This document shows positions 26,159-42,417 of a stretch of DNA of 58,187 bases, in pieces. This DNA is from an uncultured Dehalococcoidia bacterium. GTDB taxonomy: Bacteria; Chloroflexota; Dehalococcoidia; Dehalococcoidales; UBA1222. Within the stretch, counting starts at the first letter, position 1. Each line of letters opens with the position of its first letter. The stretch lies in assembly GCA_903844845.1 (NCBI GenBank), contig CAIMVG010000017.1, positions 1 through 58,187 of the forward strand. The letters are read 5' to 3'. The position numbers were made by a program, and so were the translations under genes. Below the pieces are notes generated by a model. The model was given only the letters and a program-made list of their open reading frames with translations, did no database searches and was not told the origin of the DNA.

Positions 26159-27121
26159 TTACGCTTCGACGAAATTCAACCTCGTAAATTCGGAATTACG
26201 CTTAACCTTTTCGTAGATCATATGCGCGCACGCGATGTCCTCGATAGCCAGTCCCGTCGAGTCGAAAACGGTTATTTCCCTGTCGTTTGTTCGCCCCTTC
26301 TTCGTCCCTGCCACGACGTCGCCCAGGGAACCCCGTATGCGGTTGGGGTCGAGCAGGCCTTTATCGAGAGGAACGTTTACCTCTCCCGAGGTGCTCGCCT
26401 GCCGCATGTCGTCGACAAATATGACCGCTTCGTTGAGTATTTCGGGGTCCAGTTCCTCTTTCCCGTGAGCGTCGGCGCCCACCGCGTTGATATGGACGCC
26501 GGGCTTGACCCATTCTTTCCGTACCACCGGGCTGTGCGCCGGCGTGACGGTGCAGACTATGTCCGAATCCATGACTTCGGGCAGGGTATGGGCCTCGATG
26601 CGGTACTGCGGGAAAGCCTTGATCAACCTGGAGGTAGATGCTTCCGAAAGGTCGTAAACCTTGACGAGTTTGAGGTCATAAAGGGCGGCGTGGGCCATCA
26701 ACTGGGTGTGCGCCTGCCGTCCCGCGCCGACCAGCCCCAGCGTGGAAGCATCCTTGCGCGCCAGGTATTTGGAGGCGACGGCGGAAGCCGCCCCCGTCCT
26801 GTAAGCCGTGATGTCGGTGCCGTCCATGACCGCCAGCGGATAACCGGTTTCCGGGTCGCTGTAGATGATGACCGCCATGACGGTCGGCAGGTTTCGGGAC
26901 GGGTTTGCGGGGTGAACGTTCACCCATTTCATGCCCGCGGCACCCGGGAGCGAGGCCGGCATGGCCCGGAAATCGCCTTTATCGACTGTGAGATATGATT
27001 TCGGCGGCATCTGCGCTTTTCCCAGCGCCCACTGGCGGAAAGCGTTTTCGACAGCGGGGATGACTTCTTTCATATCGAGCAGGGGCAGGATTTCGCTTTT
27101 ACAAAGGAACATGGTGGGCAT
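26159..27121 (-). CDS. Ornithine cyclodeaminase / alanine dehydrogenase / mu-crystallin family enzyme
   Basis: A 320-residue NAD(P)-dependent enzyme. The N-terminal part has MPPKSYLT, DFRAMPASLPG, MKWVNVHPANP and PLAVMDGTDITAYRTGAASA, all typical of the family. The nucleotide loop is LGLVGAGRQAHTQL. Known members make proline from ornithine, or oxidatively deaminate alanine and other amino acids; the residues seen do not settle which. AAAGGAGGGG precedes the ATG at 27121. 25948-26158 is noncoding with no clear features. Confidence 0.93.
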   Translation of the reverse strand: MPTMFLCKSEILPLLDMKEVIPAVENAFRQWALGKAQMPPKSYLTVDKGDFRAMPASLPGAAGMKWVNVHPANPSRNLPTVMAVIIYSDPETGYPLAVMDGTDITAYRTGAASAVASKYLARKDASTLGLVGAGRQAHTQLMAHAALYDLKLVKVYDLSEASTSRLIKAFPQYRIEAHTLPEVMDSDIVCTVTPAHSPVVRKEWVKPGVHINAVGADAHGKEELDPEILNEAVIFVDDMRQASTSGEVNVPLDKGLLDPNRIRGSLGDVVAGTKKGRTNDREITVFDSTGLAIEDIACAHMIYEKVKRNSEFTRLNFVEA

Positions 27122-30182: not shown

Positions 30183-30854
30183 TTAACCGGGCTGAGACGT
30201 TTCTTCGGGAAAAGGAACGCCCTGGAACGAATCGCTCGTTCCGACATCCAGCACCACATATTTGCCGGCGTCGTTGGTCTGATAAACGCCCGGGGCGGTT
30301 ATAGATTTCAAAATACCGATAAGCTTCTGCATCTGGAGCGTGATGTCCTCTTTTTCCTGTTTGTAGGAACTCGAAAAAAGGAAAACCCCGTTCACGCTCT
30401 TCGATTTGGCGCACAGGTCCACCAGATTTTGGTATTCAACGTTGGTTTTAAACCCGACGATGAATTTCCAGATCCCAGGGCGCAACTGGTCCACGGCAGC
30501 CAGGCTCTGAATGGCGTCCCCAAGGTTGTCCATGCTGACGGTCCCTTTTACCTGTATGACGCACCTGACGGCCTCGGGGCTCACGACAAAGATATCTCCT
30601 GAACTGAAAAGGGGCCCGTATTCCACCGCATTATAAACGATGATGTCGCACTCTTTGCTGGCATGGCCGTCGGGAGCCAGGATAACGCCCCGGCCTACCG
30701 AAAACGAGGCTGATACAGCTTCCCTGACGGCATCGCGTACTATGGCCTCGTAGTAGTCACCGATGATGCGGGGGTCCTTCAGCAGGGAGTTGATGACGTC
30801 CCTCTGGACCATCACCTTTTCCTGGACCTTGCGGTAGTATTGTTCCATGCTCAT
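30183..30854 (-). CDS. DUF6602 family protein (nuclease-like fold suspected)
   Basis: ATG at 30854 follows the upstream stop by one base and has GGGAGG before it; the longer frame overlaps the zincin gene. The 223-residue product matches DUF6602: IIGDYYEAIVRDAVREAV, FSVGRGVI, ECDIIVYNA, FVVSPEAVRCVIQVKGTV. The D-x-x-VY...E-x-x-VIQVKG layout looks like a PD-(D/E)xK nuclease core (Asp, Gln/Glu-Val-Lys). Family function is unknown; it is met in phage-defence settings. It is translationally coupled to the zincin gene. Confidence 0.82.
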   Translation of the reverse strand: MSMEQYYRKVQEKVMVQRDVINSLLKDPRIIGDYYEAIVRDAVREAVSASFSVGRGVILAPDGHASKECDIIVYNAVEYGPLFSSGDIFVVSPEAVRCVIQVKGTVSMDNLGDAIQSLAAVDQLRPGIWKFIVGFKTNVEYQNLVDLCAKSKSVNGVFLFSSSYKQEKEDITLQMQKLIGILKSITAPGVYQTNDAGKYVVLDVGTSDSFQGVPFPEETSQPG

Positions 30855-30855
30855 T

Positions 30856-31230
30856 TCAGGGCCTCCCGGGTTTGGACCGTTTCGCGGCGGCGATTTCATC
30901 CAGCCGCCGGTCATTTATCCCGAAGTGATGGGCCACCTCGTGCAGCACTACTTCCTGAACCTTGAGTTCGATTTCGCTGTCGGTACGGGCTATGGATTCG
31001 ATGGAATCCTGGTATATGGTGATTTTGTCCGGGGCGACCATGTTATACCCGGTCCCACGGCTTACAGCGGGCACGCCCTCGTAAAGCCCCAGGAGCAGAC
31101 TATTACCTGATCGAGATTTAAGCGGCAAATCCTCGACCACGATGTCCAAATTATCCAGTTTGTCGATAAATTCCTGCGGCAATCCTGCGACAGCATTTGA
31201 CACCAGCTGCTCAAATCGCGTTCGTTCCAT
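30856..31230 (-). CDS. Zincin-like metallopeptidase (DUF1025 / MMP type)
   Basis: A 125-residue protein in which the family motif EVVLHEVAHHFGINDRRL supplies HExxHxxGxxD zinc ligands. Preceding it is TIYQDSIE, which is also conserved. The ATG at 31230 has no SD; TATAAT (31244-31239) ends eight bases before it, consistent with a leaderless message. The C-terminus is basic (AAAKRSKPGRP). Function of the family is unknown. It forms a two-gene unit with the DUF6602 gene. Confidence 0.9.
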   Translation of the reverse strand: MERTRFEQLVSNAVAGLPQEFIDKLDNLDIVVEDLPLKSRSGNSLLLGLYEGVPAVSRGTGYNMVAPDKITIYQDSIESIARTDSEIELKVQEVVLHEVAHHFGINDRRLDEIAAAKRSKPGRP

Positions 31231-31244
31231 GTTCAAGTATTATA
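31230..31244 (-). promoter_or_regulatory. -10 box for a probable leaderless transcript of the zincin gene
   Basis: Consensus TATAAT at 31244-31239 on the minus strand, eight bases from the ATG. No SD and no clear -35. Confidence 0.5.
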
Positions 31245-31307: not shown

Positions 31308-31799
31308 TTAAGGGAAACGTTTTTCGAATATCAGCCTGTGGTCCCCCGGTGCATAAAAATCGCGGATGCGGGAGACCCTTTTATAGTCCTTTTTGATGTA
31401 AAAACGTCGGGTGTTAAGATAATTCGGCTTGCTCGAAGTCTCGATCAGCGCCAGCTTGCCGCCGGCCTTCTGTATCTGTTCCTCTGTAGTTTTTAAAAGT
31501 TGGCTGCCCGCGCCCATCCCGCGGCACTCGAGCGCCACGGCCATCCAGTAGATGTCCCAGGTGCTCTGGGTGAGTGGTGTCCGGCCGAAACAAACATATC
31601 CGATTATCTTCGAGGAAGAGACTGCCACAGTGACCAGGTAATCCCTCCCGGGGCAATCGAGATAAACATCGATGACTTCCTCGGCCACGGGGACCTCTTC
31701 GGGCTCAAATTCGGGAGTGGCCCGCAGCAGGGCCATGACAGCGGGTTTATCTGCGGCCGTCATCGGCCTCAATCGAAGTTCCACGCTACTCACTATCAA
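31308..31799 (-). CDS. GNAT N-acetyltransferase, last gene of the KamA/ATP-grasp operon
   Basis: About 163 residues. The acetyl-CoA loop lies in WMAVALECRGMGAGSQLLK (R-x-x-G-x-G), after IIGYVCFGRTPL, and the end is FYIKKDYKRVSRIRDFYAPGD, a layout shared with RimI-like and AblB-like enzymes. The start could be TTG 31799, GTG 31793 or GTG 31784; all lie at or in the end of the upstream ligase gene, which implies coupling. In known beta-lysine systems a GNAT enzyme (AblB) acetylates beta-lysine, so that role is possible but unproven. Confidence 0.88.
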   Translation of the reverse strand: MIVSSVELRLRPMTAADKPAVMALLRATPEFEPEEVPVAEEVIDVYLDCPGRDYLVTVAVSSSKIIGYVCFGRTPLTQSTWDIYWMAVALECRGMGAGSQLLKTTEEQIQKAGGKLALIETSSKPNYLNTRRFYIKKDYKRVSRIRDFYAPGDHRLIFEKRFP

Positions 31800-32784
31800 A
31801 TGCGAGCTGCATGATTCTGTCTACAAATTGCGGATAGGTCAGACCGATGGCGGACGCCTGCCGCGCAGCCCCCGAGGTTATCGAGATATCAGGGTTGGGA
31901 TTGACCTCGAGGACGCTGGCATGGCCGTCAGCATCGAGGCGCATATCAACCCGCGCGTAACCCCGGCATGCAAGCAGCCGATAAGCCGCGGTCGAAACTT
32001 CGGAAACATGAGCCCACAGGGCATCATCGACTTTGGCCGGGCAAACCGGGTCGGTATGATGAAAATATACATCGTCGGTCAGCCACTTGGCGCCGAACGT
32101 CAGCATATTCGGCAAACCCGGAGGCAGTGAAAACACGATCTCGGAAACTGACAAAACGATGGGCTTGCGTATCCCCATTATCGTCGAACTCAACTCGCGC
32201 CCGTCGATGAATTCTTCTACCAGGGCACGGCCCCCGAAAAGAGAGCATATTTTTTCGATTTGGACCAGAAGCGCGGCTGTGTCGTTAACGACGCTGTCCT
32301 GGTTCACGCCGTGACTCGCGTCTTCGGCTGCCGGTTTTACGATGCAGGGGAAGCGCAGGTTAAAGCTGGAGATTTGCTCGGGCCTCAGTTCCTGATATCT
32401 CGGAGTGTTGATGCCCGCTGCGATCAGGAGTTCTTTGGTTTTTACCTTATCCAGCGCCAGTGCCAGCGTCGGAGCTGATGACCCTGTAAAAGGCTTGCCA
32501 AGCACGGCCATTATGCCAGCCACCTTGGCCTCGGTGTCCGGCTGTCCAGCAAACCCTTCGAAAAGGTTAAAGAAAATATCCACATCCAACCCCGCCAGGA
32601 TAGAAGGGATGCTTTCTATCGGGGGGATGAGCGGAACTTTGATAACGCTGTGGCCCATCTCAAGAAGCGCATCGTAGACGGCTTTAACTTCTTCCAATAC
32701 GTCGGCGATTGCGTCGGCTTCGCCAAGCTGGCTGTATCGATCCGGAATAGGATCGTTGTAAACGAGCGCAACTCTAAGAGCCAA
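31786..32784 (-). CDS. ATP-grasp ligase, D-Ala-D-Ala ligase-like (second copy)
   Basis: A 332-residue ATP-grasp enzyme that would join a carboxylate to an amine. The central lysine motif is FPCIVKPAAEDASHGV, the acidic grasp loop ALVEEFIDGRELS, and the magnesium motif LEVNPNPDIS. In place of the HGxxGExG segment of true Ddl there is FNLFEGFAGQPDTEAKVAG, so the N-terminal substrate should not be plain D-Ala. It overlaps its upstream paralogue by 11 bp and the GNAT gene downstream. Its distance from housekeeping ddl/mur genes argues against cell-wall synthesis. Confidence 0.9.
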   Translation of the reverse strand: MALRVALVYNDPIPDRYSQLGEADAIADVLEEVKAVYDALLEMGHSVIKVPLIPPIESIPSILAGLDVDIFFNLFEGFAGQPDTEAKVAGIMAVLGKPFTGSSAPTLALALDKVKTKELLIAAGINTPRYQELRPEQISSFNLRFPCIVKPAAEDASHGVNQDSVVNDTAALLVQIEKICSLFGGRALVEEFIDGRELSSTIMGIRKPIVLSVSEIVFSLPPGLPNMLTFGAKWLTDDVYFHHTDPVCPAKVDDALWAHVSEVSTAAYRLLACRGYARVDMRLDADGHASVLEVNPNPDISITSGAARQASAIGLTYPQFVDRIMQLAFDSE

Positions 32785-33775
32785 GGCCGCACCTTTGAAT
32801 CGCCGAATTGAGGACTTCCGCTATGAGGGAGTTATAATTCCAGCCCATCGCCTCTCCCATTATCACGTAATCTCCGCTCTGGGGGTTAAGCCCGGGGAGG
32901 GGATTGACCTCGATGAAATAAGGCACGCCGTCGGCGGCTACCCGGAAATCCACGCGGGCGATGTCACGTATGCCCAGTACTGCGGAGGCTTTCAGCGCTG
33001 ATTCTTTGATACGGTTCAACACCGCGGCATCAAACCTGGCCGGGCATTCGTACTGCACCATCTCCCGCCAGTTCCGCTTGACCTCCAGGGAGTAAACGAA
33101 ATCCGGGCTTTTTTGCCTCGGCACTACGTGCATGATACCGGTCAGGCGCATCGGATTGTTCCCGATAAGCCCGACTGTGACCTCGTCACCCGCGATAAAC
33201 TCCTCCACCATCATGGGTTGTATGTAAAGCGCCATCTGCCGGCGTATCAGTTCTTTGAGTTCCCGCGGGCTGTTCACGCGGGAAGCGTTGCGGATACCCT
33301 TGCTGGAACCCTCGTGCGCAGGCTTGGTAAAAGCTGGGAAGGGGAACCCGTTCCAGTCCGTTTTCTCAAGTTCGGCCATGTCGTTTATAACCATCCAGCG
33401 CGGTGTTGCCACCCCGCAGGCAGCGACGAGCTGTTTGGTCAGCGGTTTTTCGAGGCAGATCGAAAGGGTCAGCGGGTCTGAGCCGGAGTACGGAACATCA
33501 AGCATTTCGAGGACCGAGGGGACCTGCGCTTCGCGGCTGCGGAAGTTGCCAAGCCCTTCGGCGATATTGAAAACAAGATCCGGGACGCCTTCGGCCAATT
33601 GATTTAACAGGCCGCGGCCCCCGCCCAGCTTGATGACCGAGTGCCCCTGAGACCTGATGGCGGCAGCCAATGCCTCTACGGTTTCGGGAGAATCGTATTC
33701 CTCAAAGGCGTCTTCAGGCAGCCCTTCCGCTCCCGACGCCTGTTCTTTGATGTCATAACTCAGGCCAATTTTCAT
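32774..33775 (-). CDS. ATP-grasp ligase, D-Ala-D-Ala ligase-like (first copy)
   Basis: A 333-residue ATP-grasp enzyme. Motifs: FPAFTKPAHEGSSKGI (Lys, nucleotide loop), MMVEEFIAGDEVTVG, ARVDFRVAADGVPYFIEVNPLPGLNP (magnesium Glu and Asn). The N-terminal segment FNIAEGLGNFRSREAQVPS replaces the Ddl HGxxGExG. The gene starts 15 bp after kamA stops and overlaps the next ligase. Two paralogous ligases in a row suggest two successive amide bonds, or a heteromeric enzyme. Confidence 0.91.
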   Translation of the reverse strand: MKIGLSYDIKEQASGAEGLPEDAFEEYDSPETVEALAAAIRSQGHSVIKLGGGRGLLNQLAEGVPDLVFNIAEGLGNFRSREAQVPSVLEMLDVPYSGSDPLTLSICLEKPLTKQLVAACGVATPRWMVINDMAELEKTDWNGFPFPAFTKPAHEGSSKGIRNASRVNSPRELKELIRRQMALYIQPMMVEEFIAGDEVTVGLIGNNPMRLTGIMHVVPRQKSPDFVYSLEVKRNWREMVQYECPARFDAAVLNRIKESALKASAVLGIRDIARVDFRVAADGVPYFIEVNPLPGLNPQSGDYVIMGEAMGWNYNSLIAEVLNSAIQRCGLGS

Positions 33776-33790
33776 CCGCAGTCCTGGTAA

Positions 33791-35056
33791 CTAGGCGGGA
33801 ATAGCGTCGTCGCAAACCAATTCGGTTTGAGGTCTGCGAACTTTTGCCCCGCTCGGATTGGCATAGTGGAGGATTTTCCCCTGGTAGTTGCGGACTGTGA
33901 GTTCTTCTGCATTCCGTTCGAGGATATAATCAGGCTGGACAGGGATTTTCCCGCCGCCGTTGGGGAGATCGATGACGAAGGTCGGTACAGCCAGCCCGGA
34001 AGTGAACCCGCGCATGCCCTGGATGATGTTGATGCCGGTCTCGACGGGAGTCCAAAAATGTTCTGTTCCCTGGACATCATCGCACTGGAAGAGATAGTAC
34101 GGGCGAACTTTTATCTTGAGCAGCCCCTGGCACAATTTGAGCTGGGTTTCGACTTTGTCGTTGACTCCCTTGAGCAGGACGGACTGGTTATTGACCGGGA
34201 CACCGGCGCGTACCAAGCGGTCGCAGGCTTTCGCGGCTTCGGGGGTCAATTCCCTGGGATGGTTGAAATGCGTATTGAGCCAGATAGGCCCGTATTTCGA
34301 AAGCATGTTGCAAAGCTCGTCGTCCACGCGCTGGGGGAGTACCACGGGCACCCGTGTTCCTATGCGGATGATCTCGACGTGCGGGATCGTGCGTATACCG
34401 GCCAGCACTTCTTCGAGGCGCTGGGTCGAAAGCGTCAGCGGGTCACCGCCTGAAATGATAACGTCGCGAACTTCCTTATGGCCCCGGATGTAGCCCAGCA
34501 TCGCTTCAACTTCCTGAGACGTCCGCACCCAGCCGCCGTGTCGCCATTCACGCTTGCGCGTGCAATGCCGGCAAAGCATGGGGCAGATATCGGTGAGGAC
34601 CATGAGTACGCGGTCAGGATAGCGGTGGACCAGGCCGGGAACAACGGAGTGTTCGCCCTCTGCGAGCGGGTCTTCCATCCCGCAAGAAGCCATCGACAGT
34701 TCTTCCGCGGCAGGCAGCGACTGCATGCGTATGGGATCGGCGGGGTCGTCCGGGTTCATAAGCGACAGATAGTACGGGGTGATCGCCAGGGGATATTTAA
34801 TGCTGACCAGCCTGAGCTGGGAGCGTTCTTGCGGGGTCAGATGTACGTACTTGGACAGTCCTTCAACCGTTGTTATCCGGTTGCGGAATTGCCACCGCCA
34901 GTCATTCCAATGTTCGGATGGGGTAGTACAAAAAAGACGGCGCTGGGCCGTCGCCGTTTTACCGGGGGGTTCTTCGTCCTCAAGTTGGACTGCGGTGGCA
35001 GTGGTACTGGGAGGCTCTTCTTTAACTTCCTTGGTGAGTGTAGCTTGGGCTTTCAC
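33791..35056 (-). CDS. kamA: KamA family radical SAM enzyme, lysine 2,3-aminomutase-like
   Basis: GTG at 35056 is chosen because GGAG lies nine bases before it; an ATG at 35086 (ten codons longer) has no SD. The 421-residue product has the radical SAM triad Cys158, Cys162, Cys165 (CPMLCRHC), and PLP lysine Lys370 (GGGKIPV). Asp326 (QCDD) and Asp363 (VIDLP) stand 44 and 7 residues before the lysine, as do Asp293 and Asp330 before Lys337 in the clostridial enzyme, where they bind the lysine side-chain amine. This favours lysine over glutamate. The N-terminal 40 residues are low-complexity. Reaction: L-lysine to L-beta-lysine, using SAM and PLP. It is the first gene of a four-gene operon. Confidence 0.93.
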   Translation of the reverse strand: MKAQATLTKEVKEEPPSTTATAVQLEDEEPPGKTATAQRRLFCTTPSEHWNDWRWQFRNRITTVEGLSKYVHLTPQERSQLRLVSIKYPLAITPYYLSLMNPDDPADPIRMQSLPAAEELSMASCGMEDPLAEGEHSVVPGLVHRYPDRVLMVLTDICPMLCRHCTRKREWRHGGWVRTSQEVEAMLGYIRGHKEVRDVIISGGDPLTLSTQRLEEVLAGIRTIPHVEIIRIGTRVPVVLPQRVDDELCNMLSKYGPIWLNTHFNHPRELTPEAAKACDRLVRAGVPVNNQSVLLKGVNDKVETQLKLCQGLLKIKVRPYYLFQCDDVQGTEHFWTPVETGINIIQGMRGFTSGLAVPTFVIDLPNGGGKIPVQPDYILERNAEELTVRNYQGKILHYANPSGAKVRRPQTELVCDDAIPA

Positions 35057-35147
35057 TATCTGATTCTCCTTTTTAAGTGTTGCCATTTTTCAATGCTCGC
35101 AATTCATGCAATATTTTTCATGAATCGCGACTAATTTATAATTCAAT

Positions 35148-35176
35148 TTTATAGCATTGCCATATATATATGTCAA
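35148..35176 (-). promoter_or_regulatory. Near-consensus sigma70 promoter of the kamA operon
   Basis: TTGACA (35176-35171), 17-bp spacer, TATAAA (35153-35148), on the minus strand. The leader to the GTG start is about 85 nt. Confidence 0.85.
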
Positions 35177-40556: not shown

Positions 40557-40585
40557 TGACAAAGGCATCGTTCTCCGACTATAAT
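40557..40585 (+). promoter_or_regulatory. Promoter of the radical SAM gene
   Basis: TGACAA (40557-40562), 17-bp spacer, TATAAT (40580-40585). This puts the transcription start near 40591 and rules out the in-frame TTG at 40585 as a start codon. Confidence 0.75.
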
Positions 40586-40605
40586 TGACGGGAGGAGAAC
40601 ACGAA

Positions 40606-42417
40606 TTGAAATATCCCGACCATTTGCTTTACCAGGTCACCAAACCCGCAAGATACACCGGCGGTGAATGGAACATCACCCAGAAAGATTGGGCCGGGAC
40701 GCCCCTCAAGTTTGCATTGAGTTATCCAGATACCTACGAGATAGGCATGTCCAACATGGCCGTCGGTATTCTCTACGAGCAGATCAACACCCGCGCCGAT
40801 TCCCTCGCCGAACGGGTCTTCGCGCCCTGGACCGATATGGCGCTGGTCCTGAGAAACAATAAAATCCCGCTTTTAAGCCTGGAAAGCGGGCATCCTCTCG
40901 GGGACTTCGACGTTATCGGGTTTTCACTGGGTTATGAATTCACTTTCACAAACATACTCAACATGCTCGACCTGGCAAATATCCCGGTGTGGTCGAAAGA
41001 AAGAGATGATTCATACCCTCTGGTCATAGCGGGGGGCAGCGCGGCCCTTAACCCGGAGCCGATGGCTGATTTTATCGACCTTTTTGTTATCGGTGAAGCC
41101 GAAGAAATCCTTCCGGCCCTGATCGACCTATTTTTACGCCATAAAAACCGGGCAGGCAGGTTCGACAAACGGGGACTTTTACGGGAGGCAGCGACACTTC
41201 CCGGGATTTACGTCCCCAGCCTCTACGAAGTGGATTACCTGGACGGCAAGTACCAGACCCTGACCCCGCTCGTTCCGGAAGCCCCGAAAAGCATCCGCCG
41301 ACTGATGGTTTCAAAGCTTCCGCCGCCTCCAGTGAACCCTGTTGTGCCCTACATCGAGATAGTGCACGACCGCGGCGCGGTCGAAATAGCGCGCGGGTGC
41401 TCGCACGGCTGCCGCTTCTGCAACGCAGGCGTTATCTACCGCCCGGTGCGGGAGCGCCCCCGGGCCGAAATCCTGAAAGCCATCGGGGACATCATCGAGA
41501 ACTGCGGGTATGACGAGATGTCGCTCGTTTCCCTTTCCACCGGGGATTATTCACAGATAGATGAACTGGTGGCAGAGATCACGGCAAAATACGGGAACCA
41601 GGTCGCCCTGTCGCTGCCGAGCCTGCATCTCGATACCCATTCCGTGAAACTGATAGACTCTCTGCCCGGACGGCGCAAGAGCGGTTTGACCTTCGCCCCC
41701 GAAGCCGGTTCCGAACGGCTGCAGAGGGTCATCAACAAACACATCCCCGAATCTGAACTCCTCGCTACCGCCGCGCTGGCATTCGAACGCGGTTGGACGA
41801 CCCTCAAGCTGTATTTCATGCTGGGACTGCCTACGGAGACCGACGCCGACGTGGAAGGCATCATCGAACTGGTAGCCAAAGTTAAAGCACAGGGGAGCAG
41901 GGCCCCCGGCCGCACCCCTCAGATACGGCTGACGCTATCCACCTTCGTCCCCAAACCCCATACCCCTTTCCAGTGGTCTGCCCAGGAAAGCGAAGCAAAC
42001 CTTATGCGCCGACACGAGATACTCAAACATGCGCTGGCGAAACGCGGGGTAAAAATATCCTGGCAGGACACGCGGGTCAGCCTGCTCGAAGCGGTCGTCT
42101 CAAGGGGAGACCGGAAAATCGGGCGCCTCATCCACCGCGCCTGGAAGGCAGGGGCTGTTTTCGACGGCTGGAGCGAATGTTTCAATTTCGAGATATGGCG
42201 CAAGGCCATGGAGGAAGAGGGCATCGACCCGGCTTTCTACGCCACCCGCGAACGGCCGCTGGATGAGCCTTTGCCCTGGGCGCATATAGATACCGGGGTA
42301 TCAGACGAATTTTTGAAGAGGGAATACCGGGCAGCCGTGGCCGCCGAGCTTACACCCGACTGCCGGGTTTCCGCATGCAACGCCTGCGGGCTGGAGGGGG
42401 TGGGCCCGGGGTGCTAA
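40606..42417 (+). CDS. TIGR03960-type B12-binding-domain radical SAM protein
   Basis: TTG at 40606 has GGAGGAG eight bases before it. The 603-residue product has an N-terminal B12-binding-like Rossmann region (about 25-195; YPDTYEIGMSNMAVGILY, GEAEEILPALIDL), then the radical SAM core with CSHGCRFCNAG (C-x3-C-x2-C), TFAPEAGSERL and LKLYFMLGLPTE. The end is CRVSACNACGLEG, a further Cys motif seen in the family. Homologues are often followed by a DUF2344 (TIGR03936) partner, which is missing here. The reaction is not known. Confidence 0.94.
   Translation: MKYPDHLLYQVTKPARYTGGEWNITQKDWAGTPLKFALSYPDTYEIGMSNMAVGILYEQINTRADSLAERVFAPWTDMALVLRNNKIPLLSLESGHPLGDFDVIGFSLGYEFTFTNILNMLDLANIPVWSKERDDSYPLVIAGGSAALNPEPMADFIDLFVIGEAEEILPALIDLFLRHKNRAGRFDKRGLLREAATLPGIYVPSLYEVDYLDGKYQTLTPLVPEAPKSIRRLMVSKLPPPPVNPVVPYIEIVHDRGAVEIARGCSHGCRFCNAGVIYRPVRERPRAEILKAIGDIIENCGYDEMSLVSLSTGDYSQIDELVAEITAKYGNQVALSLPSLHLDTHSVKLIDSLPGRRKSGLTFAPEAGSERLQRVINKHIPESELLATAALAFERGWTTLKLYFMLGLPTETDADVEGIIELVAKVKAQGSRAPGRTPQIRLTLSTFVPKPHTPFQWSAQESEANLMRRHEILKHALAKRGVKISWQDTRVSLLEAVVSRGDRKIGRLIHRAWKAGAVFDGWSECFNFEIWRKAMEEEGIDPAFYATRERPLDEPLPWAHIDTGVSDEFLKREYRAAVAAELTPDCRVSACNACGLEGVGPGC

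What the first reader, a model, noticed from the sequence alone, without database searches (positions are those of the whole stretch)
31308..35176. Candidate beta-lysine amide/peptide pathway: KamA, two ATP-grasp ligases and a GNAT in one operon
Seen: near-consensus promoter, then four genes with gaps or overlaps of 15, -11 and -14 bp. KamA keeps both Asp residues that bind the lysine side chain in lysine 2,3-aminomutase, at the same distances (44 and 7) before the PLP lysine. The two ligases are Ddl-like in the grasp core but lack the Ddl HGxxGExG segment. Known: ablA/ablB makes N-acetyl-beta-lysine with only KamA and a GNAT. Inference: the two ligases extend beta-lysine with other amino or carboxylic groups, giving a new osmolyte, peptide or modified cell-wall part.
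Basis: partly seen in the sequence, partly recalled or inferred. Interest (0 to 1): 0.85.

Follow-up and report, generated by a model that had tools for sequence, protein, structure and literature searches.

The report
Beta-lysine and twin ligase operon
A four-gene bacterial operon pairs an enzyme that should make the unusual amino acid beta-lysine with two ligases and an acetyltransferase; the same gene set recurs in distant phyla, so it probably builds an undescribed small beta-lysine amide, though no product has been shown.

Summary
In detail: promoter-like site, kamA, two Ddl-like ATP-grasp ligases (ligA, ligB) and a GNAT gene, with the stated spacings. The order is conserved far beyond close relatives. 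Of 80 named LigA loci, 59 carry kamA and 28 carry all four genes, in Chloroflexota, Myxococcota, Acidobacteriota and Planctomycetota. All 77 KamA proteins aligned keep both lysine-binding Asp residues of lysine 2,3-aminomutase. Both ligase families keep the Ddl ATP site but replace Ddl His63 by Glu (112/112 and 71/72). The genome shows no Mur ligases and no alanine racemase, so D-Ala-D-Ala or cell-wall synthesis is unlikely here. The GNAT is not AblB, and three related genomes carry a second, acetyltransferase-fused KamA besides kamA-ligA, so this is not simply N-acetyl-beta-lysine. A distant ligase relative sits on a plasmid with diaminopropionate/diaminobutyrate genes and kamA. New finding: the genome also has efp-epmA, and epmA tracks the operon in relatives (35/49 versus 3/52), so beta-lysine may also feed EF-P modification. 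Best reading: an uncharacterised beta-lysine amide pathway, with product and role untested. A possibly relevant 2009 prediction paper (Iyer et al.) could not be read.

The parts
35148..35176 (-). Promoter-like site TTGACA-17-TATAAA upstream of kamA
   Evidence: one match in the window, 0.07 expected; consensus match only. The general scanner does not list it because it requires T at the last position of the -10 hexamer.
33791..35086 (-). kamA: radical SAM/PLP lysine 2,3-aminomutase-type protein (431 aa)
   Evidence: 54% identical to C. subterminale LAM over 361 aa; cluster Cys, R134, D293, D330, K337 equivalents conserved in 77/77; below the NCBIfam AblA cut-off (479.7 vs 525.4).
32774..33775 (-). 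ligA: Ddl-like ATP-grasp ligase A (333 aa)
   Evidence: PF07478, AF2 model pLDDT 94.3, closest PDB folds are Ddl; His63 replaced by Glu73 in 112/112.
31786..32784 (-). ligB: Ddl-like ATP-grasp ligase B (332 aa)
   Evidence: PF07478, pLDDT 92.8; His63 to Glu76 in 71/72, Ser150 mostly Ala, Gly276 to Asp299 in 69/72.
31308..31799 (-). gnat: GNAT-fold N-acetyltransferase (163 aa), RGMGAG acetyl-CoA motif
   Evidence: Acetyltransf_1/7; no match to AblB TIGR03827; best PDB 2r7h, named putative D-alanine N-acetyltransferase, E 1e-23.

Best explanation
The operon makes a small beta-lysine-containing amide or peptide without ribosome or NRPS. KamA converts L-lysine to beta-lysine. LigA activates a carboxylate as an acyl phosphate with ATP and joins it to an amine, one partner being beta-lysine. 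LigB makes a second such bond, and the GNAT acetylates a free amine of the product. KamA plus LigA is the smallest recurring unit with an aminomutase; LigB and then GNAT are additions. The same beta-lysine pool may also supply EpmA for EF-P. Shown: gene order, conservation, residues, fold of the predicted models, absence of detected Mur ligases and alanine racemase. Inferred: substrates, order of steps, product, role (a compatible solute or small peptide metabolite is most likely).
For: Four-gene order across phyla. KamA within 59 of 80 LigA loci, and elsewhere in 17 of 19 genomes whose LigA locus lacks it. Operon KamAs mostly group apart from AblA/LAM, and a second KamA group occurs in the reversed order LigA-KamA, which suggests more than one recruitment. 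LAM substrate Asp pair in 77/77. Ligases keep the ATP/Mg residues but not Ddl substrate residues. Distant context: on a Thioflavicoccus plasmid a ligase of this clade follows dat, sbnA and an sbnB-like gene and lies next to kamA. LigA relatives sit near peptidases: S58 in Myxococcus, S66 in a Margulisbacteria locus. No detected Mur ligases or alanine racemase in G000.
Against: No biochemical data. NCBIfam gives KamA only subfamily rank. LigA also occurs without adjacent kamA, e.g. as a LigA-LigA fusion in myxobacteria, so it may not be tied to beta-lysine. The KamA of G000 could be explained by EF-P modification alone. No riboswitch was found that would support an osmolyte role.
Confidence: 0.6

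Rival explanations
1. KamA mainly supplies beta-lysine to EpmA for modification of EF-P; the two ligases and the GNAT serve another purpose and are only co-transcribed.
For: G000 has efp with the PGKG loop followed by an EpmA above its NCBIfam cut-off, and only one KamA. EpmA tracks the LigA operon in 101 relatives: 35/49 vs 3/52, Fisher 3e-12; 22/29 vs 1/18 in genomes at least 90% complete. Chloroflexi were already listed as scattered holders of yjeA/yjeK (PMC2821294).
Against: 14 of 49 LigA genomes lack EpmA; kamA, ligA, ligB stay together in many phyla; E. coli EpmB is only 32% identical and makes (R)-beta-lysine, whereas this KamA is LAM-like, and LAM makes (S)-beta-lysine. Relatives are not independent samples.
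Confidence: 0.13
2. The operon makes N-acetyl-beta-lysine as in ablA/ablB, with this GNAT in place of AblB; the ligases are accessory.
For: KamA plus a GNAT in one operon, as in abl.
Against: GNAT has no match to AblB TIGR03827; all GNAT-bearing named loci also carry LigB, while kamA-ligA occurs without GNAT; related genomes carry a true AblA-AblB fusion as well as kamA-ligA.
Confidence: 0.07
3. The ligases make D-Ala-D-Ala or another peptidoglycan piece.
For: Both proteins fall in PF07478 and their models match Ddl structures best.
Against: G000 has a single Mur_ligase_M hit, FolC, no Ala_racemase_C, and both ligases score far below every Ddl cut-off and lack His63.
Confidence: 0.03
4. KamA acts on an amino acid other than lysine (for example ornithine or arginine), so the product is another beta-amino acid amide.
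For: Profile scores for AblA, glutamate and arginine aminomutases are close (480, 459, 428 bits) and all below cut-off.
Against: Both lysine-binding Asp residues are kept in 77/77. No over-cut-off glutamate aminomutase was found in 301 genomes of the phylum to serve as a contrast, so this rests on published knowledge of LAM.
Confidence: 0.1

Closest known systems
ablA/ablB N-epsilon-acetyl-beta-lysine pathway
   Same: KamA-type lysine 2,3-aminomutase with a GNAT in one unit
   Different: Two ATP-grasp ligases are added; GNAT is not AblB; KamA is below the AblA cut-off; AblA-AblB fusion coexists with kamA-ligA in relatives
[quoted passage not shown]
   Same: Fold, ATP and Mg residues, PF07478 domain
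   Different: His63 to Glu, loss of other substrate residues, far below Ddl cut-offs, host without detected Mur ligases or alanine racemase
EpmB/EpmA EF-P beta-lysylation
   Same: Uses beta-lysine; EpmA and a PGKG EF-P are present in G000
   Different: KamA scores 249 bits against the EpmB cut-off of 369 and is 32% identical to E. coli EpmB; ligases and GNAT are not part of that pathway
N-acetylglutaminylglutamine amide (NAGGN) synthesis (from memory, not tested)
   Same: ATP-grasp ligation plus GNAT capping gives an acetylated dipeptide osmolyte
   Different: No beta-amino acid, different ligase family
ATP-grasp/GNAT amidoligase neighbourhoods of Iyer et al. 2009 (doi 10.1039/b917682a)
   Same: General idea of linked ATP-grasp ligases and GNAT capping, restated in PMC4431377
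   Different: Paper not held; whether it describes kamA-linked cases could not be checked

Membership tests
Lysine 2,3-aminomutase (KamA/LAM) | CxxxCxxC cluster motif, R134, PLP Lys337, Asp293 and Asp330 | tested here: met
   all present in 77/77
Lysine 2,3-aminomutase (KamA/LAM) | NCBIfam AblA equivalog cut-off (525.4 bits) | tested here: not met
   479.7 bits; KamA subfamily cut-off TIGR00238 is met (347 vs 199)
Lysine 2,3-aminomutase (KamA/LAM) | Converts lysine to beta-lysine | not testable with these tools
   needs enzyme assay
AblB beta-lysine acetyltransferase | TIGR03827 match | tested here: not met
   not listed at E 0.001; positive control in L162 scores 346
D-alanine--D-alanine ligase | ATP-grasp catalytic residues (Lys97, Lys144, Glu180, Glu187, Arg255, Asp257, Glu270, Asn272 in DdlB) | tested here: met
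   invariant or nearly so in 112 LigA and 72 LigB
D-alanine--D-alanine ligase | His63 of the HGxxGE segment | tested here: not met
   Glu in 112/112 LigA and 71/72 LigB
D-alanine--D-alanine ligase | NCBIfam Ddl cut-offs | tested here: not met
   best 161.3 vs 243 (LigA), 143.3 vs 243 (LigB)
EpmB | TIGR03821 cut-off | tested here: not met
   249 vs 369.3

The most novel reading that the evidence does not exclude
A widespread NRPS-free pathway, present as the full four-gene set in at least four phyla, makes an acetylated beta-lysine peptide as a primary metabolite, and its aminomutase is also the beta-lysine source for EF-P modification in organisms without peptidoglycan genes.
Probability: 0.25. 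Interest if true: 0.8.

Novelty: new variant of a known kind. Interest (0 to 1): 0.6.

Why it matters
If right, a conserved but unassigned gene set in many uncultured bacteria, whose ligases look like D-Ala-D-Ala ligases to automatic annotation, would encode a beta-peptide metabolite. It would correct wall-synthesis annotations in cells that appear to lack a wall, offer beta-amino-acid ligases as tools, and link such metabolism to translation factor EF-P.

Tried and rejected
Rfam scans near the operon and in 27 relatives found no riboswitch beside it. A glutamate aminomutase contrast set was sought and none exceeded its cut-off in the phylum. Recurrent extra neighbours were sought; none was general, and the downstream Zincin and DUF6602 genes recur only in close relatives. 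Rhizobial plasmid ligase relatives sit by transporters and insertion sequences and gave no clear substrate. Literature searches found no description of kamA with ATP-grasp ligases, in a library that lacks most subscription papers. A tree with EpmB had very long branches, so only identity is used from it.

Full report
Observation. The last two genes begin with TTG, so those overlaps depend on start choice. A TTGACA-17-TATAAA site lies at 35176-35148 and is the only such match in the window, against 0.07 expected. It is a consensus match, not a mapped promoter.

KamA. The protein is 54% identical to C. subterminale lysine 2,3-aminomutase and aligns to PDB 2a5h without gaps. In 77 KamA proteins (this one and 76 from ligase loci), the three cluster cysteines and the R134, D293, D330 and K337 equivalents are all present. 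From established knowledge, the two Asp residues bind the lysine side chain in LAM. NCBIfam places the protein in the KamA subfamily but below the AblA cut-off. No over-cut-off glutamate aminomutase was available in the phylum as a contrast, so the residue argument rests on published knowledge, not on a control made here.

Ligases. LigA and LigB are Ddl-like by Pfam, PDB sequence search and fold; AF2 models have mean pLDDT 94.3 and 92.8. They are 31% identical to each other and 27-28% to E. coli DdlB. Aligned to DdlB, both keep K97, K144, E180, E187, K215, R255, D257, E270 and N272, invariant or nearly so. Both replace H63 by Glu (112/112, 71/72). LigB also has Ala for S150 in most rows and Asp for G276 in 69/72. 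My inference is that the acidic changes suit amino-group-bearing substrates; this was not tested.

GNAT. It matches general acetyltransferase families and keeps an RGMGAG motif. It has no AblB match. Its best PDB relative is 2r7h, named a putative D-alanine N-acetyltransferase by its depositors.

Genome context. The window lies in a 1.9 Mb genome, 97.9% complete. The closest named relatives are Dehalococcoidia. The only Mur_ligase_M hit is FolC, and no alanine racemase C-terminal domain was found. Of four PF07478 hits, two are LigA and LigB; I read a third as a biotin carboxylase from its sequence, and the fourth, a weak hit in a 1087 aa frame, was not analysed. A wall role is therefore unlikely in this organism.

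Distribution. LigA is found strongly in 49 of 101 relatives, counting E at most 1e-60 (list used). All four genes are in 23 of the 29 loci taken from relatives. Of these, 28 carry all four genes, 12 kamA-ligA-ligB, 19 kamA-ligA, 7 ligA-ligB-gnat, 2 ligA-ligB and 12 ligA alone. The 28 comprise 23 Chloroflexota loci and five others, in Myxococcota, Acidobacteriota and Planctomycetota. Partial sets reach Omnitrophota, Margulisbacteria, Riflebacteria, Bacillota and Coriobacteriales. Of 19 genomes whose LigA locus lacks kamA, 17 have a KamA elsewhere. In the KamA tree, 81 of 87 operon KamAs fall on one side of a branch (SH-aLRT 95); six, from Bacillota, Coriobacteriales, Omnitrophota and an uncultured bacterium, fall with AblA/LAM. 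The tree is midpoint-rooted and quick, so repeated recruitment is suggested, not shown.

Clues to substrates. On a Thioflavicoccus mobilis plasmid, diaminobutyrate transaminase, SbnA and SbnB-like genes lead into an ATP-grasp gene of this clade (Glu at the His63 position), with a KamA on the opposite strand beside it; that KamA keeps D293 and D330. The SbnB-like protein is below its cut-off (293.6 vs 326.9). In Myxococcus a LigA-LigA fusion lies near an S58 peptidase gene, and in a Margulisbacteria locus kamA-ligA is followed by an unknown gene and an S66 peptidase gene. From established knowledge S58 includes beta-aminopeptidases. These are hints only.

Relation to acetyl-beta-lysine. Three single-contig genomes of the same order, probably Dehalococcoides by size and form (inference), carry kamA-ligA without ligB or gnat beside it, and elsewhere a second KamA in a long open frame. 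In L162 this is a 741 aa AblA-AblB fusion with both halves above their NCBIfam cut-offs. So kamA-ligA coexists with the known pathway and is likely to make something else.

EF-P. G000 also has efp with a VKPGKGRA loop and, 3 bp after its stop codon, a 308 aa EpmA above its cut-off. The operon KamA is the only KamA found. Across 101 genomes a stand-alone EpmA-like protein is in 35 of 49 LigA-positive and 3 of 52 LigA-negative genomes (Fisher 3e-12); in 47 genomes at least 90% complete it is 22/29 vs 1/18 (2.3e-6). EpmA was scored by me by eye from the table, mostly as a stand-alone frame of about 300-370 aa; this includes a few below the cut-off and one over-cut-off-scored genome set is therefore not identical. 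LysS-length frames were left out. Relatedness was not corrected for, and this association was found after looking, not predicted. Bailly and de Crecy-Lagard already listed Chloroflexi among scattered holders of yjeA/yjeK (PMC2821294).

Judgement. The best-supported reading is a beta-lysine amide pathway, at 0.6; a solute or peptide-metabolite role is my guess within it. The literature held here has no such description, but Iyer et al. 2009 was not readable, so priority is open. Novelty: a new variant combining known enzyme kinds.

Noticed in passing
G000:C7:20178-21653 (locus L213): efp followed 3 bp after its stop codon by a stand-alone EpmA; EpmA presence tracks the LigA operon across 101 relatives.
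   Followed up: partly
L162, L163, L164 (genomes G016, G088, G052): A second KamA outside the ligase operon; in L162 and L164 it is a 741-753 aa fusion with an acetyltransferase, scored as AblA-AblB in L162, in genomes that also carry kamA-ligA.
   Followed up: partly
L150, L151: Loci elsewhere in the phylum with ligA, ligB, gnat and a second ligB-like gene in one row.
   Followed up: partly
L094, L096, L100, L101, L103, L110: Myxobacterial loci with two LigA domains in one reading frame, some near an S58 peptidase gene.
   Followed up: partly
L036:4998-6014: A LigA-like protein (about 35% identical) on an IMG/VR viral contig, among methyltransferase-like genes.
   Followed up: partly
window 26159-27121, minus strand: Archaeal-type alanine dehydrogenase of the ornithine cyclodeaminase family (TIGR02371, above cut-off).
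   Followed up: partly
window 40585-42417, plus strand: TIGR03960 family B12-binding radical SAM protein, above cut-off.
   Followed up: no
window 30183-31236, minus strand: Zincin-like and DUF6602 genes just downstream of gnat; found beside the operon only in close relatives.
   Followed up: partly
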